The notes beneath the pieces are model-generated. The model did no database searches. It worked only from the letters and a program-made list of their open reading frames with translations, and had not been told where the DNA came from. Positions 8,045 through 46,083 of a stretch of DNA of 63,387 bases are shown here, piece after piece. Source of the stretch: Candidatus Gastranaerophilales bacterium (GTDB lineage Bacteria > Cyanobacteriota > Vampirovibrionia > Gastranaerophilales > Gastranaerophilaceae); the NCBI GenBank assembly GCA_944323035.1, contig CALUQY010000013.1, positions 1 to 63,387 on the forward strand. The letters are read 5' to 3'. The position numbers and the translations under genes are program-made. Every line of letters begins with the position of its first letter. Within the stretch, counting starts at the first letter, position 1.

Positions 8045-8782
8045 ATGAACTTATACTTTGAATGCAAATCAGGGATTTCAGGTGACATGTCAGTCGCAGC
8101 ATTGCTGGATTTAGGCGCGGACAGGCAAAAACTCGATAGCGCCCTGAAATCAATGAAGCTTGAAAACGAATTCACATATAACATTTCACAGGTTAATATC
8201 AACGCGATAAGAGCAACGGATTTTGATGTAATCCTGCCCGAACATCACCACCACGGGAAACACCATCACCACGAACACCGAAATCTTGATGATGTCAATA
8301 AAATTATAGATAAAACAGATACTACGGAAAATGCAAAAACACTTGCCAAAAAGATTTTCAGAATTGTAGCCGAAGCAGAAGCAAAGGTTCACGCAAAAGA
8401 TATCAAAGACGTACATTTTCACGAAGTCGGTGCTATTGATTCTATTGCGGATATTGTAAGTTTTGCGGTTCTGTTTGACGATTTAGCACCGCAAAAGGTT
8501 TATTTATCTCCTCTGACAGAGGGAACAGGCTTTGTTGAATGCCAGCACGGCAAATTACCGGTTCCGGTACCGGCAGTTTGCGAAATCGCAGCTGCTTATA
8601 AATTACCGCTCAAACTTACAGATAATAATGGTGAAATGGTTACTCCGACAGGTGCTGCTATCGCGGCTGCACTTTATACGGGAGAAACTCTGCCGGAAGA
8701 ATTTATTATAGAAAAAATAGGCTACGGCGCCGGTAAAAGAAAATATGAAAACCCGCTTTTAAGAGTAATGGTTATAAAGTAA
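8045..8782 (+). CDS. larC: LarC nickel insertion protein, LarC1 part only
   Basis: LarC is a CTP-dependent cyclometallase that inserts nickel into the pincer cofactor of lactate racemase. This 245-residue protein starts with ECKSGISGDM, has a histidine-rich stretch (HHHHGKHHHHEH, about residues 61-74), then VHFHEVGAIDSIADI and GNGxMVTPTGAAI-like motifs. It ends (ENPLLRVMVIK) at the point where full-length LarC (about 400 residues) continues into LarC2. In Lactobacillus LarC1 and LarC2 are joined by ribosomal frameshifting; here no LarC2 sequence follows, because the next gene begins 11 nt downstream. It lies 3 nt after the larB remnant, in the same operon. Confidence 0.85.
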   Translation: MNLYFECKSGISGDMSVAALLDLGADRQKLDSALKSMKLENEFTYNISQVNINAIRATDFDVILPEHHHHGKHHHHEHRNLDDVNKIIDKTDTTENAKTLAKKIFRIVAEAEAKVHAKDIKDVHFHEVGAIDSIADIVSFAVLFDDLAPQKVYLSPLTEGTGFVECQHGKLPVPVPAVCEIAAAYKLPLKLTDNNGEMVTPTGAAIAAALYTGETLPEEFIIEKIGYGAGKRKYENPLLRVMVIK

Positions 8783-8793
8783 AGGAGATAAAT

Positions 8794-9864
8794 ATGCACT
8801 TAGGAAATTCAATTATATGTCCCGTAACAGGTATTCCTATGATTATTGCAGCAGGTGCTGCAGCATTCTGGGCATTTAAAAAAAGCAGTTCTCCGTCGCC
8901 TGCTTGCCCTGCTCACGCAGGTCAACCCGCGACTACGCTGTCTAATACGCCACTCAAAAGACTCGCTTGCGTAAGCGGGAGTTGCTCCGTAACTCATTCA
9001 CGACACGTTCCTTATTGCGAGTCTTTCTCGGACAAAAAAACGAAAAAAGATTTTAACAGAGAAAACATTTTACCGACAATCGCTTTGACTTCATTTGTCT
9101 TTGCGCTGCAGATGATTAATTTTTCTATACCTTCAACCGGTTCAAGCGGACATATCGTAGGCGGGCTGCTGCTTGCTGCACTTCTCGGGCCTTATGCCGG
9201 CTTCCTTGCAATCTGTTCCATTTTGCTGATACAGTCCGTATTTTTCGCAGACGGCGGGCTAATGGCTTTAGGATGCAATATTTTTAATATGGGTTTTCTT
9301 GCCTGCTTTGTTGCGTATCCGTTTGTCTATAAACCCCTTGCAGAAAACAGACGCACGGCATTCGGCGCGATTTTAGCTTCAATTATTGCGCTCCAGCTCG
9401 GCTCAATTGCCGTTGTTGCAGAATCTGCCCTGTCAGGTTCTACAAGTGCTGATATCGGGCTTTTTGCAAGTTTAATGCAAAGTATTCACCTTGCAATAGG
9501 TCTTGTTGAAGGCTTATTCACTGCCGCAATTATACTGATTGCACAAAAAACACAGCTTTCAAAGGGGTTTTCTTATACGATTTCCACGCTTTCATTGATT
9601 CTTGCAGGAGTAATCTCACAGTTTGCATCTTCAAAACCGGACGGGCTGGAATGGTCGCTGATTAATATGTCCGATGCTTTCACAGCGCAAACTCAAGGGT
9701 ATATTTATTCAGCATCAGAACTAATACAATCAAAGGCTGCTATATTAGCCCAATTGCCGCCAATTCCGGCGAATATTGCCGGACTGGCTTTGACCGCGTT
9801 ATTGATGATTGCAATATGCAAACTTTTAAGAGGGGAAAAAGCCTCCGTCTATGAACAACAATAA
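8794..9864 (+). CDS. CbiM/NikM-type nickel (or cobalt) ECF transporter component with in-frame repeat insertion
   Basis: This 356-residue multi-spanning membrane protein has the characteristic N-terminus with His2 (MHLGNS...CPVTGIPM), which folds back to bind the metal, and the later motifs FADGGLMALGCNIFNMG and PDGLEWS. The lar neighbourhood makes nickel the likely substrate. Residues about 30-81 are not transporter sequence: they are a 153-bp copy of the dispersed palindromic repeat, exactly 51 codons and stop-free, sitting in the loop after the first membrane helix (before KKDFNRENILPTIALTSF). No ATPase or T component lies nearby. It overlaps larE by 14 nt, indicating translational coupling. 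Confidence 0.85.
   Translation: MHLGNSIICPVTGIPMIIAAGAAAFWAFKKSSSPSPACPAHAGQPATTLSNTPLKRLACVSGSCSVTHSRHVPYCESFSDKKTKKDFNRENILPTIALTSFVFALQMINFSIPSTGSSGHIVGGLLLAALLGPYAGFLAICSILLIQSVFFADGGLMALGCNIFNMGFLACFVAYPFVYKPLAENRRTAFGAILASIIALQLGSIAVVAESALSGSTSADIGLFASLMQSIHLAIGLVEGLFTAAIILIAQKTQLSKGFSYTISTLSLILAGVISQFASSKPDGLEWSLINMSDAFTAQTQGYIYSASELIQSKAAILAQLPPIPANIAGLALTALLMIAICKLLRGEKASVYEQQ
8882..9034 (+). repeat. modular palindromic repeat, copy C, inside a gene
   Basis: Short form, 153 bp, in the coding strand of the nikM/cbiM-like gene. The core stem AAAGACTCGC/GCGAGTCTTT is perfect. Its translation (TPLKRLACVSGS...HSRHVPYCESFSDKK) has no stop, and its length is a multiple of three, so the host reading frame is kept. 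Confidence 0.9.
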
Positions 9865-10636
9865 ATTTTATGAACTCAATAAATACCTGCATACACTGGG
9901 AGAGCAAGGCATTTGCCTTGCTTTTTCCGGCGGCATAGACAGCGCCCTGCTTCTCGTATTATGTAAAAATCTGAATATAACCGCCGTAACATTTCAATCC
10001 CCGCTTCAAACCGAGGAAGAAATTGATTTTACTGCCGATTTTTGTAAAAAATACAACGTCAGCCAAAAAATCATCACGCTTAACCCTCTTGAAGATGATA
10101 AAATTGTTTTAAATCCGAAAGACAGATGTTATTACTGCAAACGATTACTTTTTGAGAGAATTAAGGACTTTGCAGCGGGCATGAAGCTTACAAATATCAT
10201 TGACGGAACAAATTTTGATGATTTAAACGCATACAGACCAGGTTTGAAAGCTTTGCAGGAACTCGGTATTCTCTCCCCGTTTGCCCTTTTTAAGATTACT
10301 AAAGAAGAAATCAGAAGTTATGCAAAATCTCTCGGGCTTGAGATTTTCAATAAACCCTCAACCCCGTGCCTTGCAACACGTTTTCCTTATGACACGCGAT
10401 TAGACCTTGACTCAATTGAGCGCGTTAAAAAGAGTGAAAAATACTTAAAGGGAATCGGATTTACTGAAAACAGGGTTCGTCATCACGGGAATATTGCGCG
10501 GATTGAAATCAGACCGGAAAATTTTACAGAATTTTTACAACACAGCCGTGAAATAAACGCGAAATTTAAACATCTGGGCTTTACCTACGTGACGCTTGAC
10601 ATAGAAGGCCTGCGCAGCGGCAGCATGGACTTATGA
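9851..10636 (+). CDS. larE: LarE, ATP-dependent sulfur transferase of nickel-pincer cofactor synthesis
   Basis: LarE adenylates a carboxylate of the LarB product and adds sulfur. This 261-residue protein has the PP-loop FSGGIDSALL (residues 25-34), a CYYC pair (C93, C96) and the TPCLATRFPY motif with C173, at the position of the sacrificial or cluster-binding cysteine of known LarE proteins. Length and ends look complete (C-terminal LDIEGLRSGSMDL). It overlaps the transporter gene. With larB broken, larC short and larA absent, LarE may be a survivor of a decaying pathway, or may serve a cofactor whose other genes lie elsewhere. Confidence 0.88.
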   Translation: MNNNKFYELNKYLHTLGEQGICLAFSGGIDSALLLVLCKNLNITAVTFQSPLQTEEEIDFTADFCKKYNVSQKIITLNPLEDDKIVLNPKDRCYYCKRLLFERIKDFAAGMKLTNIIDGTNFDDLNAYRPGLKALQELGILSPFALFKITKEEIRSYAKSLGLEIFNKPSTPCLATRFPYDTRLDLDSIERVKKSEKYLKGIGFTENRVRHHGNIARIEIRPENFTEFLQHSREINAKFKHLGFTYVTLDIEGLRSGSMDL

Positions 10637-29408: not shown

Positions 29409-31364
29409 ATGAAACTTATTGTACTAGCCCTGATTATTTATTTGTTTGGCGCGGTTACACAATATTTTTTCAAAGAAAACCAAAAGTGTAACTACCTAAT
29501 CGCCTTAAACACAATTGCAACTATGTTAGCTGTTGGCGGAACGCTGGGCTGTTTTGTTAGCCAGAGCTACAATCAAGATTTAATGTTTGAGTTCGGAAAC
29601 ACTCTTGTCAATGTGGTTTTATCACTTGACGGTTTGTCCGCGTTTTTTGTTTTAATAATTGCGGTTGTTTCCTGGCTCGCTATGATTTATTCAAAAGGTT
29701 ATCTTGCAAAATATGTTGAAGCCGGTAAAAGTGTTAATTCGCACTACTTCTGTTTCAATATTTTTGTTATGGCTATGATTTTAGTCGTATTATCACAAAA
29801 CGTGTTTGCCTTTCTCATCGCGTGGGAAATTATGAGTTTCAGTTCATTTTTGCTAATGCTGTTCGATGCAGATCAGGCAAGTGTCAGAAAAACCGCAATG
29901 CGCTATCTTGTTACAATGCACATTGGGGTTTTATTTTTAATCGCAGGTTTTGTGTTATTAAATATTAAAACCGGAAGCATCTGGTTCTTTGATTTTAACG
30001 GACAGGTTACACCGTTAATCTACGGTTTAATGTTTATCGGTTTCGGCATAAAAGCCGGTCTGGTTCCGGTTCACACATGGCTGCCAAAGGCGCACCCCGT
30101 TGCACCGAGCCATATTTCAGCATTAATGTCAGGCGTTATGATTAAGACCGGTATTTACGGGATTTTAAGAATGACGCAGCTTTTAAACCAGCCGTCTGCA
30201 GGACTTGGATATACAATCCTTGCGGTCGGACTTGCTACAGCACTTCTTGGAATACTTTATGCCACAGGACAGAGAGATTTCAAAAAAATGCTTGCGTATT
30301 CCTCCGTTGAGAATATGGGAATTATTACTCTTGCAATAGGTTTGGGCATTTTAGGTATTGCATACCACAATGTCGGGCTGAAAACGTTAGGGTTCTTAGG
30401 CTGCTTTATGCACATAATAAACCACGCGGTATTTAAGCCGTTAATGTTCTTTGCAGCGGGCGCTGTTTACAATAAAACCCACACAAAAGATATGGAAAAA
30501 CTCGGCGGGCTGGCAAAAGTTATGCCAAAAACCGCGTTTTGCTTCCTTATCGGTTCAATGGCGCTTTGTGCCCTGCCGCCATTCAACGGCTTTATAAGTG
30601 AATTTTTAATCTACTACGGATTTTTAAATTCCTTCAACACGCCGAATTACTTACTAATACCGGTAATGATTCTTGCAATGGCCGGTCTGGCGTTTGTCGG
30701 CGCAACAGCAATGGTTGCATTCACAAGTGCATACAGCACGATTTTCCTCGGGAACCCGAGAACTGAAAAAGCAGAACACGTTAAAAATGATGTTCCGCTT
30801 TCTATGACGGCACCGATGATTTTACTGGTTGTAATTTTGACTTTAATAGGTCTGTTCCCGCAGTATTCAATACTTATCATCGGTGGGGCAACGACGGAAC
30901 TCGTTCCGTTCATCTACCCTGTTGAAATCTTAACTGTGATATCGTTCTTCAACATAACTTTATTGTTGACTATCGGAATTTTATTACTGGTAAGACAGGC
31001 ATTTCTTGCAGGGAAAACCGTTACGGTTAGAAATACGTGGGGCTGCGGTTATGATAAGGGAACTGCTAAAGTTCAATATACCTCAACATCCTTCACAAGA
31101 CCTTTCTTAGGATTTTTAAACCCGTTCTATGTAAGGGTTATGGAGTTTAAACACATCAAGGAATTATTCCCTGAAAAAACATCATTCAAATCTAAAATAT
31201 ACGATATCTTTGAATACTATATCATTAACCCGCTGGTAAAATTTGACGAAAATTTACTTTCAAAATTCTACTGGATTCAGAGCGGTAACACTCAAAGATA
31301 CTTATGGTACAGCATTCTGGCATTAATCATCGCAATTTGCCTGGTATTAGGAGGAAAAATATAA
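29409..31364 (+). CDS. HyfB/NuoL-like proton-pumping membrane subunit
   Basis: A 651-residue antiporter-like protein with about 15 hydrophobic helices. Key signs are the core AWEIMSFSSFLLMLF, GFGIKAGLVPVHTWLPKAHPVAPSHISALMSGVMIKTG (conserved Lys and His of the channel) and MLAYSSVENMGII. The C-terminal part has RNTWGCGYD and a lateral helix, as in HyfB. It should move protons or sodium when driven by the redox arm encoded downstream. First gene of a six-gene operon; its stop overlaps the next start (TAATG). Confidence 0.92.
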   Translation: MKLIVLALIIYLFGAVTQYFFKENQKCNYLIALNTIATMLAVGGTLGCFVSQSYNQDLMFEFGNTLVNVVLSLDGLSAFFVLIIAVVSWLAMIYSKGYLAKYVEAGKSVNSHYFCFNIFVMAMILVVLSQNVFAFLIAWEIMSFSSFLLMLFDADQASVRKTAMRYLVTMHIGVLFLIAGFVLLNIKTGSIWFFDFNGQVTPLIYGLMFIGFGIKAGLVPVHTWLPKAHPVAPSHISALMSGVMIKTGIYGILRMTQLLNQPSAGLGYTILAVGLATALLGILYATGQRDFKKMLAYSSVENMGIITLAIGLGILGIAYHNVGLKTLGFLGCFMHIINHAVFKPLMFFAAGAVYNKTHTKDMEKLGGLAKVMPKTAFCFLIGSMALCALPPFNGFISEFLIYYGFLNSFNTPNYLLIPVMILAMAGLAFVGATAMVAFTSAYSTIFLGNPRTEKAEHVKNDVPLSMTAPMILLVVILTLIGLFPQYSILIIGGATTELVPFIYPVEILTVISFFNITLLLTIGILLLVRQAFLAGKTVTVRNTWGCGYDKGTAKVQYTSTSFTRPFLGFLNPFYVRVMEFKHIKELFPEKTSFKSKIYDIFEYYIINPLVKFDENLLSKFYWIQSGNTQRYLWYSILALIIAICLVLGGKI

Positions 31365-32269
31365 TGACACTTTTAACAATGATTATTTTTCCAATATTAA
31401 AAATGATATTACTATTATCACTCCCATTTTTATTCATTGGTGTAATAAATAAAGTAAAGGCAAAATTCGCGGGGAAACAGGGCGCAAGCATTTTCCAGCC
31501 GTATTTTGACTTCAACAGACTTATGAACAAAGGTGAGGTAATCAGTGAAACTTCAACCGCAATTTTCCGCGTGGCTCCGGTCATTAACCTTGCCTGCTTA
31601 ATCGTTGCGGCAATGCTGGTTACGGTAATCCATTTTGAAGGTGATTTTATTCTGTTCTCTTATCTTTTGGCTCTGGGAAAATTCGTTTCCGTAACCGCGG
31701 CAATGGATACTGGTTCAAGCTTTGAAGGTATGGGGGCTTCAAGAGAAGTAAGCTACACTTCTTTAATAGAACCGGCTTTCTTCATCATAATTTCATCAAT
31801 CTGCGCAATGAACGGGGTTTACTCGTTTGCATCACTTGCGCATTTGTTCTGGTCTAATAATGACATAATGATTTTAATTGCTCTTGCGACAGTATTTGCA
31901 TTATTCCTGATAATCTTAATCGAAGGTTCAAGAGTTCCGATTGACGATCCTAAAACCCACCTTGAATTAACAATGATTCACGAAGTTATGGTTCTTGATA
32001 ATTCCGGTGTGGATTTGGCCTTCATTCAGTACGGCGCGGCTTTAAAAATGATGTTGTTCACAACAATCATCACGATGACAATTGCACCGCTAAGCTTTGT
32101 CGGCTCTGTGCTTGTGGCACTGGCAATCGCAGTTCTTATCGGTATAATCGAATCTTTATGCGCAAGAATAAGATTAACACACATAATAGAATATACTTTT
32201 ACATTAATTGTAGCAGCGTTAATTGTAATGGCACTTGTTCTATTAATTATGCACGGAGGACATTTGTAA
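31364..32269 (+). CDS. HyfC/NuoH-like membrane anchor subunit
   Basis: A 301-residue protein that connects the membrane arm to the redox arm. It has NuoH family features: KGASIFQPYFDFNRLMNKGE-like segment, SFEGMGASREVSYTSLIEP, LIEGSRVPIDDPKTHLELTMIHE (charged loop facing the redox module). The start at 31364 shares the A of the preceding stop; a longer frame overlaps hyfB. Preceded by AGGAGG. Confidence 0.92.
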   Translation: MTLLTMIIFPILKMILLLSLPFLFIGVINKVKAKFAGKQGASIFQPYFDFNRLMNKGEVISETSTAIFRVAPVINLACLIVAAMLVTVIHFEGDFILFSYLLALGKFVSVTAAMDTGSSFEGMGASREVSYTSLIEPAFFIIISSICAMNGVYSFASLAHLFWSNNDIMILIALATVFALFLIILIEGSRVPIDDPKTHLELTMIHEVMVLDNSGVDLAFIQYGAALKMMLFTTIITMTIAPLSFVGSVLVALAIAVLIGIIESLCARIRLTHIIEYTFTLIVAALIVMALVLLIMHGGHL

Positions 32270-32270
32270 T

Positions 32271-32981
32271 ATGATTAACTTCTTAATTGTAATATTCGGG
32301 ATTTCAATGTTATATATGGCAACCTCAAGCCGTATTGCAGCGCAGACAAATATGTTGAGATTACAGGGGATTGTTCTTTGTATAATCACAATATTTGCCC
32401 ACATTAACGAACTCGATACAACGAGTATCTGGTCTGCCCTGACGTCACTGTTTACCCACGTTGACGCACTTGTCGGTGCAGCGTTCCTGATTGTTGAAAC
32501 CTTTGTTGTCAAAGCACTCATCATTCCGAACGTTCTGGATAAAGTTGCTGAAAAAAATAACATCAAAAGGGATAACAACCCTCAGTTCCCGAACTTTTAT
32601 ACACTGGTAATTTCAACAATAATTCTGTTCGCAGGATTTATGATTGCAAGCAGTCAGGTTGATATTTTGCAAAACATTTCAAGCCTTTATTTCGGTGTAT
32701 CTGTTTCAACGATTATCACAGCGTTCGTATTCATTGCAATCAAAAAGAAATTACTTACCCACGTAATCGGGTTTGCAATGCTTGAAAACGGTATCTTCCT
32801 TCTTTCTCTTTCTGTAGCGAAAGAAATGCCGTTAATCGTAAACCTCGGGGTCTTGCTGGACGTGTTTGTCGCAGTATTTATCCTAGGGCTGTTGATTGGT
32901 GAAATCGGTAGTATTTATGGCAACCCTGATGTTACACAACTTTGTAATTTAAAAGATAGCGAGATGGCGAAAGATGAATAA
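32271..32981 (+). CDS. HyfE-like (NuoK-type) membrane subunit
   Basis: A 236-residue hydrophobic protein with a NuoK-like part: GFAMLENGIFLLSLSV carries the conserved membrane Glu, followed by MPLIVNLGVLLDVFVAVFILG. It starts 1 nt after the hyfC-like stop and overlaps the next gene by 8 nt. Confidence 0.85.
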   Translation: MINFLIVIFGISMLYMATSSRIAAQTNMLRLQGIVLCIITIFAHINELDTTSIWSALTSLFTHVDALVGAAFLIVETFVVKALIIPNVLDKVAEKNNIKRDNNPQFPNFYTLVISTIILFAGFMIASSQVDILQNISSLYFGVSVSTIITAFVFIAIKKKLLTHVIGFAMLENGIFLLSLSVAKEMPLIVNLGVLLDVFVAVFILGLLIGEIGSIYGNPDVTQLCNLKDSEMAKDE

Positions 32982-34230
32982 TTATTTTGTTTTAGATAGT
33001 TTAAATTTATTATTTTTGATTGCACTGGTCGTTGTAACCGTTTGTGTAATGTTTTATCAAGGGTTCAACTACTGCAAAAACGCTAAGGAAAATTTAAAAT
33101 ATTATTCAATATTTTTCTTATTTTTCCTTTCAATGGTAGGTGCAATACTATGTAATCACTTAGGTTTAACCTGGGTATTTATAGAAGCAACGACATTGAC
33201 AAGCGCATATTTGATTATGCTTCATAAATCAAAAAATTCCCTTGAAGCGACGTGGAAATATGTATTCCTTTGTTCAATCGGGATTTCTCTGGCGTTTGTC
33301 GGTATAATCCTGCTGTTGATAGGCTCCGGAAGTGTAAACTCATTATTCTACGATGATTTATACGCACACGCTTCAGCAATAAATCCGTTCTGGTTAAAAT
33401 TATCATTCATATTTATTTTAATCGGATTTGGTACAAAAGCTGGGTTTGCACCGGTTCACAGCTGGCTGCCTGATGCGCACGCGGAAGCACCTTCTCCGGT
33501 ATCTGCAATGCTTTCAGCAACACTTTTAAACTCCGCGGTTCTTGTTATCTTGAGATTAGTAAAACTTATGAGCCTCGCGGGTTTAGGTCATACTGTTCAG
33601 GTTTTGATGCTTGCAATGGGGCTGCTTTCAATATTTATTACAGCAGTTTACGTTTACAGAATTAAAAACTACAAAAGAATGCTTGCGTATTCCTCTGTTG
33701 AAAATATGGGGATTATTTCAGTCGGTATCGCACTTGGCAGCTTAGGTACAATCGGGGCACTAATTCACGTTCTTTGCCACTCGTTGATTAAAAGCTCCCT
33801 GTTCCTGACTTCCGGAAACATTCTTCACCTATACAACACTAAAGAAGTTGAAGAAGTTAAAGATATTGTAAGTAAAAACAAATGCACATCGTGGTTATGG
33901 CTTCTGGGGGCAATGTTAATCCTTGCGATTCCGCCATCCCCGCTGTTCTTATCGGAATTTTTGATTATCAAACAATTCCTGCTTAACGGACAGATTGTAT
34001 TGTGCATGATAATGCTTCTTTTGTTAACTTTCATTATCTACGGTATTATGAATACCGTTTTGAAAATGAATTATTCAACACATAATAACAACGGAACCGA
34101 ACCGGTAAAACTGCCGATTCGTAACTACATACCTCAAATTTTCCTTATAGTAACAGCAATTGTACTTGGTATTTATATGCCAAACGGATTATTTGAATTA
34201 ATTAAAAATGCAGGTGAAATGATATGGTAA
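32974..34230 (+). CDS. HyfF/NuoN-like membrane subunit
   Basis: A second antiporter-type subunit, 418 residues, with IGFGTKAGFAPVHSWLPDAHAEAPSPVSAMLSATLLN and MLAYSSVENMGIISV, the same motifs as the first subunit (two pumping subunits in all). At 418 residues it is shorter than HyfF (about 520). It overlaps the large subunit gene by 7 nt. Confidence 0.9.
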   Translation: MNNYFVLDSLNLLFLIALVVVTVCVMFYQGFNYCKNAKENLKYYSIFFLFFLSMVGAILCNHLGLTWVFIEATTLTSAYLIMLHKSKNSLEATWKYVFLCSIGISLAFVGIILLLIGSGSVNSLFYDDLYAHASAINPFWLKLSFIFILIGFGTKAGFAPVHSWLPDAHAEAPSPVSAMLSATLLNSAVLVILRLVKLMSLAGLGHTVQVLMLAMGLLSIFITAVYVYRIKNYKRMLAYSSVENMGIISVGIALGSLGTIGALIHVLCHSLIKSSLFLTSGNILHLYNTKEVEEVKDIVSKNKCTSWLWLLGAMLILAIPPSPLFLSEFLIIKQFLLNGQIVLCMIMLLLLTFIIYGIMNTVLKMNYSTHNNNGTEPVKLPIRNYIPQIFLIVTAIVLGIYMPNGLFELIKNAGEMIW

Positions 34231-35654
34231 TGACAAAAACACTTAAATTTAAAAATAACGAAGTAATAAAAAAATCAGAAATTCCTGTATTGGAATTCAG
34301 TGAATTTGAACGTCTGGTAACTGATACCCATTTTCGTGTTGCAAATCTCTTTATTAATCAGGAAGAATACAAAAACAATATGTACGCGGTAATTGCAGAC
34401 GATATCAATGCGCAGCTGCATATTGCAAGTACAATTGTCGGGAACGAATACCCTTCACTGACGCTTAAACGTCCGGCAGTACACATGTTTGAACGTGAAA
34501 TTTACGAAAATTACGGAATTCGTCCGGCCGGACATCCGTTTTTAAAACCGGTGAGAGTCAACGAGGGTTATGAATTTCTAAAATCCGATGATCTTCAATC
34601 CCACGAAGTTGCTGTAGGGCCTGTGCACGCAGGGATAATTGAGCCGGGGCATTTCAGATTTTTATGTCAGGGCGAGCGCGTAATGCACCTTGAAATCCAG
34701 CTTGGCTGGCAGCACCGCGGCGTTGAAAAAATGCTTAAAAATAACCCGAATATCTGGCTTGCAGAATCAATCAGCGGAGATACAACAATCGGCCATTCAA
34801 GCGTATTTGCCCGCGGAATCGAAGCTTTAACCGGGATGAAGGTGTGCAAACGCGCACAAACAATCCGCAAAATCGCACTTGAAATGGAAAGAATGGCAAT
34901 CCATATCGGGGATATCGGCGCAATCGCAGGTGATATCGCATACCTTATGGCGGCGAATGTTCTGGGCGTTACAAGAACCCTTGTTATCAACACAATGCTT
35001 GAAATCTCCGGAAGCCGTTTTGGTAAAGGTTTGATGAGAATAGGCGGCGTAAACTTTGATATAGATGATGAATTAAAAGACAAAATCACCAAAATGCTTG
35101 AAGAAGTTGACACCCGTGTGACAGAAATGTGTGATGCAATGTTTTCAAACGCAACGGTTCTTTCAAGACTTGAAAATACCGGTCTGGTTTCAACCAAAAA
35201 AGCTGAAGAAATCGGTATGGTAGGCCCGGCGGCAAGAGCGTCCGGCGTAGTGGTTGATTGCAGACTTTTCGGAGATTACAAAAATTTTGTTCCAGTCAGT
35301 GCCCGCAACGGCGATGTCTGGGCAAGAGCTTACCAGAGATTTTTGGAAATCAAACAATCTAAAGCAATGATTTTGGATATGCTTGAAGAACTCAACGGCA
35401 AGCTTGAAACACCTGAAATCAAAACCGGTTATGCACCAAACGGTATGTGCCTGACCTTCACTGAAGGCTGGAGAGGCGAAATCTGCCACGTAATAATTAC
35501 GGACAAAACAGGCGCAATCGAACAATATAAAATTAAAGATCCGTCATTCCACAACTGGTTCGGGCTTGCTCTGGCTGTCAGAAACAATCAGATTTCTGAC
35601 TTCCCTGTCTGCAACAAAAGTTTCGACCTTTCATACTGTGGATTTGACCTGTAA
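34224..35654 (+). CDS. group-4-hydrogenase-like large subunit lacking nickel ligands (NuoC-NuoD fusion)
   Basis: A 476-residue protein. Residues about 20-110 are a NuoC-like domain (FEREIYENYGI, GHPFLKPV); the rest is the 49-kDa / large-subunit fold (GPVHAGIIEPGHFRF, LGWQHRGVEKML). The place of the first nickel-binding motif RxCGxC..H reads ESISGDTTIGHSSVFA, and the C-terminal DPCxxC reads FDLSYCGFDL, so both CxxC pairs are gone. It therefore should not bind NiFe and is unlikely to be a hydrogenase. Ehr complexes (energy-converting hydrogenase-related) are defined by this loss. Electron acceptor unknown. Confidence 0.88.
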   Translation: MVMTKTLKFKNNEVIKKSEIPVLEFSEFERLVTDTHFRVANLFINQEEYKNNMYAVIADDINAQLHIASTIVGNEYPSLTLKRPAVHMFEREIYENYGIRPAGHPFLKPVRVNEGYEFLKSDDLQSHEVAVGPVHAGIIEPGHFRFLCQGERVMHLEIQLGWQHRGVEKMLKNNPNIWLAESISGDTTIGHSSVFARGIEALTGMKVCKRAQTIRKIALEMERMAIHIGDIGAIAGDIAYLMAANVLGVTRTLVINTMLEISGSRFGKGLMRIGGVNFDIDDELKDKITKMLEEVDTRVTEMCDAMFSNATVLSRLENTGLVSTKKAEEIGMVGPAARASGVVVDCRLFGDYKNFVPVSARNGDVWARAYQRFLEIKQSKAMILDMLEELNGKLETPEIKTGYAPNGMCLTFTEGWRGEICHVIITDKTGAIEQYKIKDPSFHNWFGLALAVRNNQISDFPVCNKSFDLSYCGFDL

Positions 35655-35669
35655 TAAAAGGAAAATACT

Positions 35670-36401
35670 ATGTTAAAAACATTAAGAACTGTACACTTAC
35701 AAAAAAATCAGATAATAAAAGACATAAGAGGCCGCGAAATTAAACCGAAATTCCGCGGGATTCCGGTAATTGACGAGAAAAAACTGACAAACTTAAAAGA
35801 ATGCCGGAAAGCTTGTCCGACCGGAGCGATTACCAACGACAAAAAGATTGACCTTGGTAAATGCATTTTCTGCGGCGAATGCGCGCGGGTTTCAAACGGT
35901 GCAATAAACTTCACCCGCAACCATAAATACAGCGCAGCAAAACGTGAAGATTTAATCGTAAACGGTGAAATCAATCCGATTGCCGCAAAAGAAGAAATCG
36001 TAAAAGTCTTCGGCCAGTCACTCAAATTACGTCAGGTTTCAGCCGGCGGCTGCAATTCGTGTGAAATGGAACTCAATGCCTGCTCCAACGCAAACTTTGA
36101 CATTGGCAGATACGGAATTGATTTTGTAGCTTCCCCGCGCCACGCAGACGGCGTTGTTATAACAGGCCCTGTCACCAAAAATATGGCAAAAGCGCTGGAA
36201 GATACCTTCCTATCCACTCCTGAGCCGAGAATTGTAATCGCAGTCGGTGCCTGCGCAATTTCAGGCGGTGTATTCCAAGATTCTGACGAAATCGACAGAA
36301 CTTTCTTTGAACGCCACCCGGTTGACCTGTACATTCCGGGCTGCCCTGCACACCCGCTCACGATTATTAACGGAATACTTGATTATTTAGGTTGTAAGTA
36401 A
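35670..36401 (+). CDS. NuoB-like small subunit fused to a ferredoxin domain
   Basis: A 243-residue iron-sulfur protein. The N-terminal half has ferredoxin clusters (CRKACPTGAI and CIFCGEC), as in HyfH/NuoI, though each motif is somewhat reduced. The C-terminal half is the NuoB-type 20-kDa subunit with GGCNSCEME, GACAISGG and PGCPAHP, the ligands of the proximal [4Fe-4S] cluster. The fusion combines two subunits that are normally separate. Last gene of the operon; GC-rich hairpin sequence follows near 36430. Confidence 0.9.
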   Translation: MLKTLRTVHLQKNQIIKDIRGREIKPKFRGIPVIDEKKLTNLKECRKACPTGAITNDKKIDLGKCIFCGECARVSNGAINFTRNHKYSAAKREDLIVNGEINPIAAKEEIVKVFGQSLKLRQVSAGGCNSCEMELNACSNANFDIGRYGIDFVASPRHADGVVITGPVTKNMAKALEDTFLSTPEPRIVIAVGACAISGGVFQDSDEIDRTFFERHPVDLYIPGCPAHPLTIINGILDYLGCK

Positions 36402-36477: not shown

Positions 36478-37671
36478 GTGAAAAAGATAATTGTTATATT
36501 TACACTAATTTTATTATCATTCATACCCGCTTATGCAATACAGGAAGATACAAGACCGGTAGAACTCAAAGACATTATACTCCAATCAGAAGTAGAAAAA
36601 GTTCAGGAAACCCCTAAGGTTCAGGATATAGAAATCCCGCACGAAAAAACATTTTCGGAAAAGGTTCACGATATCCTGACGGCCGAGGTGGAAAAAACAG
36701 ATACTCCATATCACCTGCTTTCTGATATTGCAACATTACATTTGAAAAAAGGCCCTGTTGAAAGTCTGCATTTGTGGGGTGCATATCAGGGTCAGCTCGG
36801 CATTCACTTGCAGCATAACGAAGGCGGTTATACAGACTGGACGGAAGGTTCGGTAAACGTTGGTATCGACGGTAAATTCAGAAGCGGTAAAGAAGATTTC
36901 CGCTTAATGGTTAACTTGCAACCGCAGCACGGCAGAAACTTCTGGCAAAACCTGCCGGCAGATATGTATATCGCAACCAACCGTATTCCGCATCACCGGA
37001 TTATGTTTGGTAATTCCAGACCTCCTGTCGGTGTTGAAGGCGGTCAAAGCCCTTACACATTACCATTTATCTACCGTTCACAAATTTCCCGAACATACGG
37101 TACTGTTCGTAAATTCGGGGTACGGGTTCAGGGAAACTACGATTTAATTGAATACGATTTGGGCGGTTACAGTTCTGATACGTATTTCAGGAAATTCTTC
37201 CCCGGGGTTGAATTTACCGGCTGGGTAAACTTAAAACCGCTGGGCAAAACCGACGGCAGATACGGAAAATTAAAACTCGGCGGCGGTATCAACGGCGGTC
37301 AGTATGGCAGCGGTGAGTTTTTTGTTGCCGGCGCTTACGCGGATTACGAATACAAAAAATTCTTTGCCAACTTTGAATGGGCGCAAGCTGACGGTTCCAA
37401 CGGTGTTGCAGGTTATACTAATAAACAGACAGGCGGTTTTTATTCAACCATAGGCTATAAAATTACTCCGAAAATTGAAGTTCTGGCAAGATATGACCAG
37501 TTTGATCCGGATAGAAACATAGGCCACAATATGATAAGAGAATACACTGCCGGCATCAACTATTACGTAAAAGGACAGGGGTTGAAACTAATTTTTAACT
37601 ATATTTTCTGCCAAAATCAGGGCGCAAACGACTCACACCGCTTCATGATAGGTACACAGGTTCTGCTGTAG
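36478..37671 (+). CDS. outer-membrane beta-barrel (porin-like) protein
   Basis: 397 residues starting at GTG. The signal peptide (MKKIIVIFTLILLSFIPAYA) is followed by a charged 50-residue stretch, then many amphipathic strands with Gly and aromatic girdles (LHLWGAYQGQLG, GYSSDTYFRKFFPG, FFVAGAYADYEYKKF, TAGINYYVKGQG), ending FMIGTQVLL as barrels do. Substrate and family not recognised. It follows the Ehr-type operon by 76 nt but may have its own promoter. Confidence 0.8.
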   Translation: MKKIIVIFTLILLSFIPAYAIQEDTRPVELKDIILQSEVEKVQETPKVQDIEIPHEKTFSEKVHDILTAEVEKTDTPYHLLSDIATLHLKKGPVESLHLWGAYQGQLGIHLQHNEGGYTDWTEGSVNVGIDGKFRSGKEDFRLMVNLQPQHGRNFWQNLPADMYIATNRIPHHRIMFGNSRPPVGVEGGQSPYTLPFIYRSQISRTYGTVRKFGVRVQGNYDLIEYDLGGYSSDTYFRKFFPGVEFTGWVNLKPLGKTDGRYGKLKLGGGINGGQYGSGEFFVAGAYADYEYKKFFANFEWAQADGSNGVAGYTNKQTGGFYSTIGYKITPKIEVLARYDQFDPDRNIGHNMIREYTAGINYYVKGQGLKLIFNYIFCQNQGANDSHRFMIGTQVLL

Positions 37672-41363: not shown

Positions 41364-43079
41364 CTAGCCTAAAAAATTTTTAGAGTCAATCTGTTCGGAT
41401 ACGTTCTTTTCTATGTCGCTTCTGAAAATCCTCACGTCATCCAGTTCTTTTATCGCCTGCATATTCGCAACGCGTGAAGCCGCTTTCTGTTCTTTAGTTA
41501 CGTAAAAGTCAAAGGCTATTATTGGCGCAGTGCTTATCAATACACTGCCTAAATATTTTAAAAAGCCTTTCATTATCGCGTCAAGATTTTTTATCCCTGT
41601 TGATTTTGAACCTATTGCCTCAGGAATTCTTATTAAATATTTGAACCCGACTATTGCTCCTACTGCACTGCAAATTAAACCCAGCGGCTGTTTTAATGAA
41701 TTCCCGAGTGCCTCAACATTTTCAGAATATTTTTGTGACATCTCGTCAACTTTATTGAATGTTTTAAATGTATTGCGCTGTAAAATTTCCGCTTCACGCA
41801 ATTGCTCCCCGCTTAATTCGATTTTTTCAAGCGCTTTGTTGAATTTTTTATCTTCAAGTCCTTCTGTTTTTTGATATTTTTTGTATGCCTGATTGTCTTT
41901 ATAGACCTGCCATAAAAATTTGAAGAAATTAGGACGTTTTTTTGTTTGAACCTCTATGTTATCTCCGATTTCTGCATTAACCTTTTCATCGTCAACATAT
42001 ATAAGCTGTTCCGGATTTCTGGCGAGTTCCTGTCTTATGTTAAATCTTCCGACCCGTGATGCTTGTTTTTGAATAGATGTAGAGAAGGCTGCAAGGCCGA
42101 TTGTACCAGCTAAACCGATAGCCCAAGGTGCAATTTTTGCAGGAAAGTTTTCGGGTTTGACTTTGAGTAGTTTGTTTACTCTGTCGCTAAGCCAGCCTAT
42201 TGCGATACCGAAAAGCGGGGATAATATCGTTAGCGAATTGGTTGCAAATTCTACGTTTTCTGCATAATCCTGTGATGCAATATCAATTTTTTCAACTAAT
42301 TTTGTTAAAATTTGCCGGTCACGTTTGGCTTTTTCCAGTTCTTCCGGACTTAACTCTGAATTTTGTAACGGTTCTTCTTCATGGATTAATTTTTTAAATT
42401 CTTCCTGATCTTTTCGTGCAAGTTCCTCCTGTTTGTTGAAACTTTTTAGAATATTAACTGATTCTTTGAATGAGAATTTAGATGTTGCGATTTCAGTTTC
42501 TTCTTTACTAAGTTTTATTTTGGCGCTTTCTTCTTTTGCCTGTTTAAGCTGTTCTTCTGTCAAAACAGCGAAATTAGCGGGATTTTGAAGCTGTGTTTTC
42601 ATAGCTTCCAGTCTGCCTTTGCGTGACGCGCCGGTTTCGACTTTTGCAGCCCACGCCATTATCGGAAACGCCGCGATTGAAGCCAGTGCACCGCCTATTG
42701 TCATTGGTACGAGGGTTGCGAGAAAGGCAAGGGTTTTATTTGTTTGTGCCATTTTGTTAAAATATTTCCGGATAGGTTTTAAGCGCATTGCCCCGAGTCC
42801 GGCGAAGCTGCCGAGAAACGAAATCCCGCCGATTATCTGCTGGGAAACTATTTCTGTTGATAGCTCAGTATTTTCTGCGCTGGCCTGAGAATATTCATCC
42901 AGAATATCAATTGCCTTTAAAAGCGTTTTGCCGCGTTGTATGTCCTCTTCTCTTTTTAATTCGGGATGTTTTTCAAGATAGGCAAGCCGTTTGGCCTCCT
43001 GCTTATCTCTTTGTGATTTCCAGTTTGTATATTGGGGTTGAAACTGTTTATACGCATTATAATCTTTGAACATGTCCAT
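41364..43079 (-). CDS. hypothetical membrane protein with three tandem modules
   Basis: 571 residues built from three diverged copies of one module (about 60-175, 255-365 and 430-550). Each has a helix ending SQ.YAENVE / SQKYSENVE, two or three hydrophobic helices rich in Gly and Ala (IGGISFLGSFAGLGAM, LFGIAIGWLSDRV, ICSAVGAIVGFKYL), and a KxxASRxxR tail. Long charged linkers with Glu/Lys separate them. No family recognised. Probably cytoplasmic-membrane. It lies upstream of tRNA-Ser on the same strand. Confidence 0.7.
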   Translation of the reverse strand: MDMFKDYNAYKQFQPQYTNWKSQRDKQEAKRLAYLEKHPELKREEDIQRGKTLLKAIDILDEYSQASAENTELSTEIVSQQIIGGISFLGSFAGLGAMRLKPIRKYFNKMAQTNKTLAFLATLVPMTIGGALASIAAFPIMAWAAKVETGASRKGRLEAMKTQLQNPANFAVLTEEQLKQAKEESAKIKLSKEETEIATSKFSFKESVNILKSFNKQEELARKDQEEFKKLIHEEEPLQNSELSPEELEKAKRDRQILTKLVEKIDIASQDYAENVEFATNSLTILSPLFGIAIGWLSDRVNKLLKVKPENFPAKIAPWAIGLAGTIGLAAFSTSIQKQASRVGRFNIRQELARNPEQLIYVDDEKVNAEIGDNIEVQTKKRPNFFKFLWQVYKDNQAYKKYQKTEGLEDKKFNKALEKIELSGEQLREAEILQRNTFKTFNKVDEMSQKYSENVEALGNSLKQPLGLICSAVGAIVGFKYLIRIPEAIGSKSTGIKNLDAIMKGFLKYLGSVLISTAPIIAFDFYVTKEQKAASRVANMQAIKELDDVRIFRSDIEKNVSEQIDSKNFLG

Positions 43080-44478: not shown

Positions 44479-45186
44479 ATGGGAAATTTTATCAGATCAA
44501 TCGCGGACTATAGCGGAAACTTATTACAGAGATTTCATTTAAAATCTTCTGAGCCGCTGGAACATGCTGTTCGTCTGACGCCCAAACGTTTTCTGGGGAT
44601 TAAGTATGCAAATAATATAAAATACGGTTCTAAAAAGGTCGGGTTCGTTAACTATGAGATTAAAACAAAACATTATGCAACGGAAGCAGATTTTCCTGCC
44701 GACTGGTTTGTGAAAGAGGCGCCGCGGGATAAAGGCGGAAATCATCTTTTAAAGCCGTTTATGTGGATAAATGAATTGCGTATGAACGATAGATTTGGCA
44801 AGCCGTGTTTGGTAAAACGCGACAAAAAATACGGCGCAATGACAATGAAGGAACTGCTAAAAATCGCACAGAATGAGGGTTGTGACAGCCGCATTGCTCT
44901 ATTGGCAGATGTTTTGCCGGATACCGGTTTTACCCCCGGAAGATTTTATAATAAAATGGGATTCTCACTTACTCCTGCAGAACAGCGTTTAATGCAAAAA
45001 ATTGAGTATAGATATCTTGATATGTTTGAAGAATTAAAAATTAAGGGGCTTAGCGAAGAGGAAATAAAAGTGCTTCTGGGCTTTAACGGGATATTCAAGC
45101 CCGAAAAAATCGGCGGGCGGTTTGTTGCAGAAACCGGCAGGTTTAATCTTACTAATCCTGAATGTATTATTGATTATTTAGTATAG
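44479..45186 (+). CDS. hypothetical protein, GNAT-like fold, paralogue 1
   Basis: 235 residues. The middle (YGAMTMKELLKIAQNEGCDSRIALLAD, then PGRFYNKMGF) has the order of strand, helix, strand and FYxKMGF seen at the end of GNAT acetyltransferases, but the Q/RxxGxG loop is not canonical. It is clearly related to the next gene (LLKPFM.INE..MNDR.GK, FKPEKI.GR, LTNPECI). No signal peptide. Activity unproven. Confidence 0.6.
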   Translation: MGNFIRSIADYSGNLLQRFHLKSSEPLEHAVRLTPKRFLGIKYANNIKYGSKKVGFVNYEIKTKHYATEADFPADWFVKEAPRDKGGNHLLKPFMWINELRMNDRFGKPCLVKRDKKYGAMTMKELLKIAQNEGCDSRIALLADVLPDTGFTPGRFYNKMGFSLTPAEQRLMQKIEYRYLDMFEELKIKGLSEEEIKVLLGFNGIFKPEKIGGRFVAETGRFNLTNPECIIDYLV

Positions 45187-45240
45187 CACTGGCAAAATAT
45201 ATTTTTTCTGATACTTATGTTAGGTACAAAAGGAAATTTA

Positions 45241-46083
45241 ATGATAAAACTTAATACAACCCGATATCCTGTAGGAACCTTTTTACGTCCGCATATTGCT
45301 TATAGACCGGAGATGACGTTAAGATATGTGCCGCCAGTGAAAAACGGGTTTGAGTCTGTACGAACTCAACCTGTGGGTATGCAATGTGTGGGTAATTTCT
45401 TCCGGAATTTATGGAATAAGTTATTTAAAAAGCAGCCGGAGGAAGTTTGCAATGATAATTTTGTGACTTTCAAGCACTCTAAATTTATGGGGTTTAATGA
45501 AAGTGGTTATGATATCTTTCACGGCACTAAAAAGGTTGGTTATGTGCATTATGATATAGTTAGTGATAAGGATGGCGTCGGGGCTAACTATCCTTCAAAC
45601 TGGTTTTGGGATAATCCGGCTCCTTCTTTTTATGAGATGGGTCTGTTGAAACCTTTTATGCGGATTAATGAATTTAGTATGAATGACAGGCTGGGTAAGA
45701 AGCAGTTAATTCCGCGAGATAAGAAATTCGGCACAATGGCGATGAAAGAACTTTTAAAATTTGCGAATGATTCCGGCTGCGGCGACAGGATATCGCTCTA
45801 TGCCGGACGGCTTGGCGGTACAAAATTTGAGCCTGGAATGTTCTATCACAAAATGGGATTTTCTCTTTCACCTTCCAGAATAGCGGATTTAACTTTTATG
45901 GAAAAACGTTATTATTTAAGACTAAAAAATTTGCTTGATGAGGGTTTATCCGAAACTGAGGCAAAGGCTGTTTTAGAAAAGCAAAAAATTTGTTGCCCCG
46001 TAAAAATTGACGGGCGTTACGTGGAAAACTCAGGGCAAATGTACCTTACAAACCCCGAATGTATAAGGAATTACAAAGTGTAA
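45241..46083 (+). CDS. hypothetical protein, GNAT-like fold, paralogue 2
   Basis: 280 residues from the ATG at 45241 (AAAAGGAAATTTA upstream; an earlier ATG at 45217 lacks a site). It has an extra basic N-terminal region of about 70 residues, then shares with paralogue 1 VGYVHYDI, LLKPFMRINEFSMNDRLGK, FGTMAMKELLKFANDSGCGDRI and FYHKMGFSLSPS. It lies 54 nt downstream, a tandem duplication. Confidence 0.6.
   Translation: MIKLNTTRYPVGTFLRPHIAYRPEMTLRYVPPVKNGFESVRTQPVGMQCVGNFFRNLWNKLFKKQPEEVCNDNFVTFKHSKFMGFNESGYDIFHGTKKVGYVHYDIVSDKDGVGANYPSNWFWDNPAPSFYEMGLLKPFMRINEFSMNDRLGKKQLIPRDKKFGTMAMKELLKFANDSGCGDRISLYAGRLGGTKFEPGMFYHKMGFSLSPSRIADLTFMEKRYYLRLKNLLDEGLSETEAKAVLEKQKICCPVKIDGRYVENSGQMYLTNPECIRNYKV

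What the first reader, a model, noticed from the sequence alone, without database searches (positions are those of the whole stretch)
34224..36401. Hydrogenase-like complex lacking the nickel site
The large subunit reads ESISGDTTIGHS where RxCGxCxxxH should be, and FDLSYCGFDL where DPCxxC should be, so neither CxxC pair is present, while the proximal Fe-S ligands of the small subunit and two proton-pumping subunits are kept. This matches Ehr-type (energy-converting hydrogenase-related) complexes, whose electron acceptor remains unknown. The small subunit is also fused to a ferredoxin-like domain, so ferredoxin may be the donor. In a fermentative organism this would be a main ion pump.
Basis: partly seen in the sequence, partly recalled or inferred. 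Interest (0 to 1): 0.66.

Follow-up and report, generated by a model that had tools for sequence, protein, structure and literature searches.

The report
Nickel-free hydrogenase-like membrane ion pump
A gut-type relative of cyanobacteria carries a complete, well-preserved membrane complex that looks like a hydrogen-making ion pump but has lost the nickel site, so it must do something other than make hydrogen; what it passes electrons to is still unknown.

Summary
The window belongs to Candidatus Gastranaerophilus (Melainabacteria). A six-gene operon at 29409-36401 encodes two antiporter-like subunits, NuoH-like and HyfE-like subunits, a fused NuoC/NuoD-like large subunit and a NuoB-like small subunit fused to a ferredoxin-like domain. 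None of the four [NiFe] cysteines is present; a family signature (ExxxGD[TS] and NKSF[ND]LSYxGxD) stands in their place in nearly all 73 relatives read. This is not a sequencing error: dN/dS is 0.02-0.08, and no genome of 39 relatives has HypD. The tree places it in one strongly supported clade outside the cysteine-bearing hydrogenases and NuoD. So it is an Ehr-type complex by the usual definition, and Ehr has already been reported from Melainabacteria.

Two additions. First, the window genome has no match for FeFe hydrogenase, MqnA/D, MenD (over cut-off), Rnf/Nqr or cytochrome bd, yet has two 2-oxoacid:ferredoxin oxidoreductase clusters. Second, eight relatives (six Bacteroidota, Allomeiothermus, Mycobacterium branderi) have lost the proximal-cluster cysteines too, while keeping the ferredoxin-domain cluster.

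Best reading: a ferredoxin-fed ion pump with a short N6b-N2 wire and an unknown, non-quinone, non-proton acceptor. A redox-gated transporter is the bold alternative.

The parts
29409..31364 (+). HyfB/NuoL-M-like antiporter subunit, 651 aa
   Evidence: PF00361 1.1e-51, PF00662; NCBIfam hydrogenase 4 subunit B 5e-158 but below its cut-off; Glu-TM5, Lys-TM7, Lys-TM8, Glu-TM12 kept
31364..32269 (+). NuoH/HyfC-like membrane subunit, about 301 aa (start inferred at 31364; ORF list gives 31304)
   Evidence: PF00146 1.4e-21
32271..32981 (+). HyfE-like (NuoK-like C-terminal part) membrane subunit, 236 aa
   Evidence: NCBIfam hydrogenase 4 membrane subunit 1.6e-14, below cut-off; alignment
32974..34230 (+). 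HyfF/NuoN-like antiporter subunit, 418 aa, N-terminally shorter than HyfF
   Evidence: PF00361 6.9e-50; matches HyfF profile from position 67; Glu-TM5, Lys-TM7, Glu-TM12 kept
34224..35654 (+). Large subunit: NuoC-like N-terminus fused to NuoD/HycE-like domain without [NiFe] cysteines, 476 aa
   Evidence: PF00346 2.6e-37 and PF00329; PDB hits 6cfw_L 1.9e-39, 7z0s_E 2.3e-38; Foldseek best 7z0s_E, TMq 0.83
34764..34784 (+). E181-S-I-S-G-D-T187 in place of the [DE]RxCGxC motif
   Evidence: E181 68 of 73, G185 72 of 73, D186 70 of 73 relatives
35610..35648 (+). C463-NKSFDLSYCGF-D475 in place of DPCxxC; one residue (L476) follows, with no C-terminal extension for a maturation protease
   Evidence: S470 72 of 73, Y471 73 of 73, G473 73 of 73, D475 72 of 73
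35670..36401 (+). Small subunit: ferredoxin-like domain fused to NuoB/HycG-like domain, 243 aa
   Evidence: PF01058 9.9e-29, PF00037 1.5e-5
35814..35882 (+). Ligands for one [4Fe-4S] cluster, N6b-type: C49 (CP) and C65/C68/C71; the N6a-type set is incomplete
   Evidence: N6a/N6b naming recalled from complex I
36051..36344 (+). Proximal (N2-type) cluster ligands C128, C131, C195, C225
   Evidence: CCCC in 64 of 72 relatives with a readable small subunit

Best explanation
An Ehr-type complex: a membrane ion-translocating complex of the complex I / group 4 hydrogenase superfamily. Shown: six intact subunits, intact pump residues, a wire reduced to two clusters (one ferredoxin-domain cluster next to the proximal cluster), no [NiFe] ligands, no quinone His/Tyr, strong purifying selection. 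Inferred: reduced ferredoxin made by 2-oxoacid:ferredoxin oxidoreductases docks at the ferredoxin-like domain; electrons pass N6b to N2 to a small-molecule acceptor in the large-subunit pocket lined by the conserved E181/G185-D186 and S470-Y471-G473-D475; and the change there drives H+ or Na+ outward through the two antiporter-like subunits. The acceptor is not H+ at a nickel site and probably not a quinone. Separate estimates: Ehr-type complex 0.95; ion transport is its output 0.8; ferredoxin-type donor 0.55; unknown non-quinone acceptor in the pocket 0.5.
For: Subunits and motifs. Clade of 35 of 35 and 37 of 37 Ehr rows apart from hydrogenases and NuoD. No HypD in 39 of 39 genomes. dN/dS 0.06-0.08 (large) and 0.02-0.05 (small) within the genus. 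No PF02621, MenD over cut-off, Rnf/Nqr or cytochrome bd in the window genome. FeFe hydrogenase in 0 of 7 genomes of the genus, against 30 of 32 others. Two oxidoreductase clusters that would reduce ferredoxin.
Against: No acceptor or donor was identified. No redox partner gene was seen linked to the operon. Eight relatives keep the complex without N2 ligands, which a simple wire model does not explain for them. Relatives on proteobacterial plasmids have no ferredoxin-like domain (L058-L061). Ferredoxin-producing enzymes are near universal in the kin searched (37 of 39), so their presence says little. ATP synthase was not searched.
Confidence: 0.5

Rival explanations
1. Redox-gated or redox-independent ion transporter: an Mrp-like machine in which the hydrogenase-like module is a sensor or structural lid rather than a catalytic site.
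For: Eight of 72 relatives lack the N2 ligands yet keep the operon, the large subunit and the N6b ligands; N2-less Bacteroidota genes are under purifying selection, dN/dS 0.06-0.12.
Against: All Gastranaerophilales members read, including the window, keep all four N2 cysteines, which suggests that electrons do reach the pocket there.
Confidence: 0.2
2. Ferredoxin:quinone oxidoreductase like photosynthetic NDH-1 or Fpo.
For: Fold and subunits are those of complex I.
Against: Positions aligned with the quinone-binding His and Tyr of NuoCD are I139 and G185 (the role of those residues is recalled). No PF02621 and no MenD over cut-off in the genome, although a scavenged quinone is not excluded.
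Confidence: 0.1
3. Works backwards: uses the ion gradient to reduce ferredoxin with electrons from an unknown donor.
For: Complexes of this superfamily are often reversible (general knowledge; no call tests it).
Against: The genome already has two 2-oxoacid:ferredoxin oxidoreductase clusters and no FeFe hydrogenase to drain ferredoxin, so a sink looks more needed than a source.
Confidence: 0.1
4. A cryptic metal site of another kind sits in the large-subunit pocket (acidic/Ser/Tyr ligands).
For: Invariant acidic residues in the pocket motifs; nickel uptake and LarC/LarE genes lie in the same window.
Against: No maturation genes seen near the operon; the ligand set resembles no redox-metal site known to me.
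Confidence: 0.06
5. Decaying remnant of a hydrogenase.
For: Loss of the four cysteines.
Against: Low dN/dS, six intact genes, presence in 87 of 286 genomes of the order with no internal stop in those places (counted by hand).
Confidence: 0.02

Closest known systems
[quoted passage not shown]
   Same: Group-4 architecture, no [NiFe] cysteines, antiporter-like subunits, unknown function (passages read)
   Different: Whether the window clade is the same clade as those Ehr was not tested. No linked formate dehydrogenase or NuoE/F-like genes were recognised among the ORFs listed around the operon.
E. coli formate hydrogenlyase / hydrogenase 4 (HycE, HyfG)
   Same: Gene order HyfB-C-E-F-G-(H+I), NuoC/NuoD fusion; best Foldseek hit 7z0s_E
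   Different: No CxxC pairs, no C-terminal extension, no HyfD, no HyfA/HycB; HyfH- and HyfI-like parts are fused, with ligands for one cluster in the ferredoxin part
Pyrococcus membrane-bound hydrogenase (6cfw)
   Same: Best sequence hit in the PDB, 1.9e-39
   Different: Has a [NiFe] site and a different Mrp-like membrane arm (recalled)
Pyrococcus MBS/Mbx (6u8y_L)
   Same: Ferredoxin-fed relative with an altered NiFe site (recalled); PDB hit 1.7e-18
   Different: MBS motifs were not compared here
Respiratory complex I (NuoB/C/D/I)
   Same: Fold of the large subunit and of an N2-less relative's small subunit
   Different: No quinone His/Tyr; separate branch in the tree; CxxC and not CC at the proximal cluster

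Membership tests
Ehr-type complex (defined as group 4 hydrogenase-like, without NiFe ligands) | No CxxC pairs in the large subunit | tested here: met
Ehr-type complex (defined as group 4 hydrogenase-like, without NiFe ligands) | Antiporter-like plus NuoH-like membrane subunits in one operon | tested here: met
Ehr-type complex (defined as group 4 hydrogenase-like, without NiFe ligands) | Proximal [4Fe-4S] ligands kept | tested here: met
   C128, C131, C195, C225 in the window; not met in 8 of 72 relatives
Ehr-type complex (defined as group 4 hydrogenase-like, without NiFe ligands) | Same clade as published EhrL of Geobacter or Margulisbacteria | not tested
   Those sequences were not fetched
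Ehr-type complex (defined as group 4 hydrogenase-like, without NiFe ligands) | Ion translocation | not testable with these tools
   Only residue conservation
Group 4 [NiFe] hydrogenase | RxCGxC and DPCxxC | tested here: not met
Group 4 [NiFe] hydrogenase | Hyp maturation (HypD) in the genome | tested here: not met
   0 of 39 genomes including the window's own; the control rings in 4 of 14
Complex I (NADH or ferredoxin:quinone oxidoreductase) | Quinone-binding His and Tyr of NuoD | tested here: not met
   I139 and G185 at the aligned places; I139 in 71 and G185 in 72 of 73 relatives
Complex I (NADH or ferredoxin:quinone oxidoreductase) | Groups with NuoD in a tree | tested here: not met

The most novel reading that the evidence does not exclude
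Ehr complexes need not be electron-transfer-driven enzymes at the old active site. Across the family the NiFe site, N6a and, in at least two lineages, N2 have been lost, while the pump, the large subunit and (wherever the ferredoxin-like domain exists) the N6b cluster ligands persist. In all 8 N2-less members the third ligand is replaced by Asp or Glu, which could imitate the negative charge of a cysteine-bound cluster. The bold reading is a redox-gated ion transporter: the ferredoxin-domain cluster senses ferredoxin redox state and gates ion flow, and N2-less members have that gate permanently set or read it without electron delivery. The window-type complex would be an intermediate that still has N2.
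Probability: 0.13. Interest if true: 0.85.

Novelty: new member of a known kind. Interest (0 to 1): 0.5.

Why it matters
The reaction of Ehr complexes is an open question. This genus narrows it: no FeFe hydrogenase, no HypD, no quinone-synthesis marker over cut-off and no Rnf were found, and yet there is a fully conserved pump with a short two-cluster wire. The natural series N6a+N6b+N2, N6b+N2, N2 only and N6b only gives ready-made variants for asking whether electron flow through N2 is what drives ion transport in this superfamily.

Tried and rejected
Sequencing error or pseudogene: rejected by the same motifs in relatives at 97-30% identity and by dN/dS. Placement inside Cys hydrogenases: rejected; seven Cys-bearing rows only, so most named groups 4a-4i are not represented; the row I labelled Phocaeicola_NiFe proved to be a NuoD-type sequence without the cysteines and should be read as NuoD. 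Midpoint rooting means 'apart from' and not 'older than'. Allomeiothermus and M. branderi are long branches; they were and left out. Porin at 36478-37671 as a seventh subunit: rejected, since it is adjacent in the genus and in some sister loci but was not found in the locus of most other Gastranaerophilales. AlphaFold of the large subunit to see the cavity: fold fine (pLDDT 79.7), cavity loops below 50, so no pocket geometry is claimed. Co-occurrence with POR_N: not informative (37 of 39). Mutual exclusion with FeFe hydrogenase: not supported; outside the genus, Ehr-bearing G013, G026, G031, G032 and G038 have both. Literature: searches showed no description of N2-less Ehr in their listings; they cover open-licence PMC only. 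My cluster-typing script missed the ferredoxin-like domain of L125, corrected by eye; L070 had no readable small subunit and L126 no large subunit.
Full report
WHAT IS THERE. Six consecutive genes on the + strand, 29409-36401, overlap or nearly touch. Pfam/NCBIfam name them as two Proton_antipo_M subunits, a NADHdh (NuoH) subunit, a hydrogenase 4 membrane (HyfE-like) subunit, a Complex1_30kDa + Complex1_49kDa fusion, and an Oxidored_q6 protein with a 4Fe-4S domain. The contig is from a genome of 1.94 Mb, 99.9% complete; its near relatives include Candidatus Gastranaerophilus phascolarctosicola (L026, 92% identical large subunit). It is the only PF00346 protein found in that genome.

THE MISSING NICKEL SITE. 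Against E. coli HycE and HyfG and other cysteine-bearing relatives, the window has SISGDTT for RVCGICG and DLSYCG for DPCYSC. All four cysteines are missing. The chain ends one residue after the second motif, so the C-terminal extension seen in HycE and HyfG is absent too. In 73 distinct relatives the replacement is itself conserved: E181 68, G185 72, D186 70, S470 72, Y471 73, G473 73, D475 72 (misses include gaps and Mycobacterium branderi). The place of the first cysteine is free: C 28, A 24, S 9, T 6, N 3, V 1, E 1, gap 1. HypD is found in 0 of 39 genomes of the window's kin while ringing in 4 of 14 controls. Within the genus dN/dS is 0.056-0.079 for the large and 0.019-0.046 for the small subunit.

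WHERE IT BELONGS. In an IQ-TREE of 47 rows, 37 Ehr-like rows stand apart at 100/100 from HycE/HyfG, one cysteine-bearing Oligoflexia row and seven NuoD rows. With more hydrogenases added and the two longest Ehr branches left out, 35 of 35 Ehr-like rows stand apart at 100/99 (seven truly Cys-bearing rows, since the Phocaeicola row proved to be NuoD). Best sequence match in the PDB is MbhL 6cfw_L, then HycE 7z0s_E; best fold match is 7z0s_E, TMq 0.83. In 286 genomes of the order, 87 carry the close form (hand count of genomes with a place over 200 bits); 48 more have only a distant match, and the three distant ones I could align (L019, L020, L022; four more came out as fragments) are NuoD-like.

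WIRING. Complex I names are used by analogy (recalled). Of 73 relatives, 72 have a readable small subunit; their ligand sets are: N6a+N6b+N2 27, N6b+N2 33, N2 only (no ferredoxin-like domain) 4, N6b only 8 (with L125 moved by eye). The window and its genus are N6b+N2. The eight without the full N2 ligands are L042, L044, L045, L046, L049 and L111 (Bacteroidota: DCDN, or DCEN in L044), L057 (Allomeiothermus: TDES) and L109 (M. branderi: NDDA). In a sample of 395 Bacteroidota genomes, 17 have the small subunit, of which 2 (L110, the same gene as L045, and L111) lack N2 ligands and 15 keep them. The N2-less Bacteroidota nest beside an N2-bearing row (L112), and the tree forces at least two changes of the label. 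They are under purifying selection (dN/dS 0.058-0.123 small, 0.074-0.094 large), still score as Oxidored_q6 and still fold like HycG/NuoB (model pLDDT 72). Five of the six carry a third antiporter-like gene (not seen in L111's locus L129), and the genomes of those five also have a second, NuoD-like protein. Against the 'pocket without wire' reading: M. branderi has lost D186, S470 and D475, and Allomeiothermus has lost D186, so the pocket signature partly goes with N2 there; it is intact only in the Bacteroidota cases.

CELL CONTEXT. In 39 genomes (the window's and 38 relatives): FeFe hydrogenase PF02906 in 30, but in 0 of the 7 of the genus; POR_N in 37; MqnA/D PF02621 in 8, none in the genus; MenD over its cut-off in 0, with weak sub-cut-off matches in 38; Rnf/Nqr PF03116 in 0; cytochrome bd in 0. 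The window genome has two 2-oxoacid:ferredoxin oxidoreductase clusters and lacks a match to the roughly 1180-residue PFOR type of many relatives. So low-potential ferredoxin is probably made, and none of the sinks searched (FeFe, Rnf) was found. Not searched: ATP synthase, formate dehydrogenase, Nfn, other oxidases, group 1-3 hydrogenases (HypD absence argues against them).

HOW IT MOST LIKELY WORKS. Shown: architecture, ligands, selection, tree. Inferred: ferredoxin docks at the fused domain, electrons pass N6b to N2 to a small molecule in the pocket, and the coupling runs through the NuoH-like subunit to the two antiporter-like subunits, whose key Glu/Lys residues are present. H+ at a nickel site is excluded by sequence; quinone is unlikely. 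The acceptor stays unknown. The N2-less relatives warn that the redox step may be regulatory in at least part of the family.

WHAT IS KNOWN. Passages read in PMC6349859 report Ehr in four Melainabacteria genomes and a hypothetical formate dehydrogenase partner; PMC10284858 and PMC10432482 (passages) state that Ehr in comammox Nitrospira and ammonia-oxidising archaea lack the CxxC motifs and have unknown function; PMC7894505 (passages) reports Geobacter Ehr abundant on formate. PMC12361115 was seen only in its reference to Marreiros et al. 2013, whose text I did not see. Ehr is therefore a known kind; the window is a new member of it, with useful context. No paper in the listings of the searches named was seen to describe N2-less forms, but only open-licence PMC was searched. 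That the M. tuberculosis genes Rv0082-Rv0087 may belong to the same family is recalled and was not tested.

Noticed in passing
L042, L044, L045, L046, L049, L111 (Bacteroidota), L057 (Allomeiothermus silvanus plasmid), L109 (Mycobacterium branderi plasmid): Relatives whose small subunit has lost the proximal-cluster cysteines (DCDN, DCEN, TDES, NDDA in place of CCCC) while keeping the ferredoxin-domain cluster ligands; the third ligand is acidic in all eight.
   Followed up: partly
window 8045-10636: LarC, a CbiM/NikM-like nickel/cobalt transporter and LarE lie together, so the cell probably imports nickel or cobalt and makes parts of the nickel-pincer cofactor pathway although it has no HypD for NiFe hydrogenase maturation.
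   Followed up: partly
window 32974-34230; L028, L029, L041: The HyfF-like antiporter subunit is about 60 residues shorter at its N-terminus than in other Gastranaerophilales, in this genus and a sister group.
   Followed up: no
L042, L044, L045, L046, L049: Bacteroidota N2-less operons have a third antiporter-like gene between the HyfB- and HyfC-like genes.
   Followed up: partly
L058-L061: Proteobacterial plasmid relatives have a small subunit without any ferredoxin-like domain; Variovorax PBL-E5 plasmid 3 carries one complex of each type side by side.
   Followed up: partly
L025, L039: Public bins titled Fusobacterium sp. (L025) and Muribaculaceae bacterium (L039) carry contigs whose large subunit is 87% and 49% identical to the Gastranaerophilus one, probably mislabelled or mixed bins.
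   Followed up: no
window 44479-46083: Tandem paralogous genes of 235 and 288 aa sharing a long motif, with no Pfam match.
   Followed up: partly
window 41364-43079: 571-aa protein with what look like internal repeats and no Pfam match.
   Followed up: no
window 36478-37671: Porin-like gene (PF07396) directly downstream of the operon in the genus, not found beside the complex in most other relatives.
   Followed up: partly
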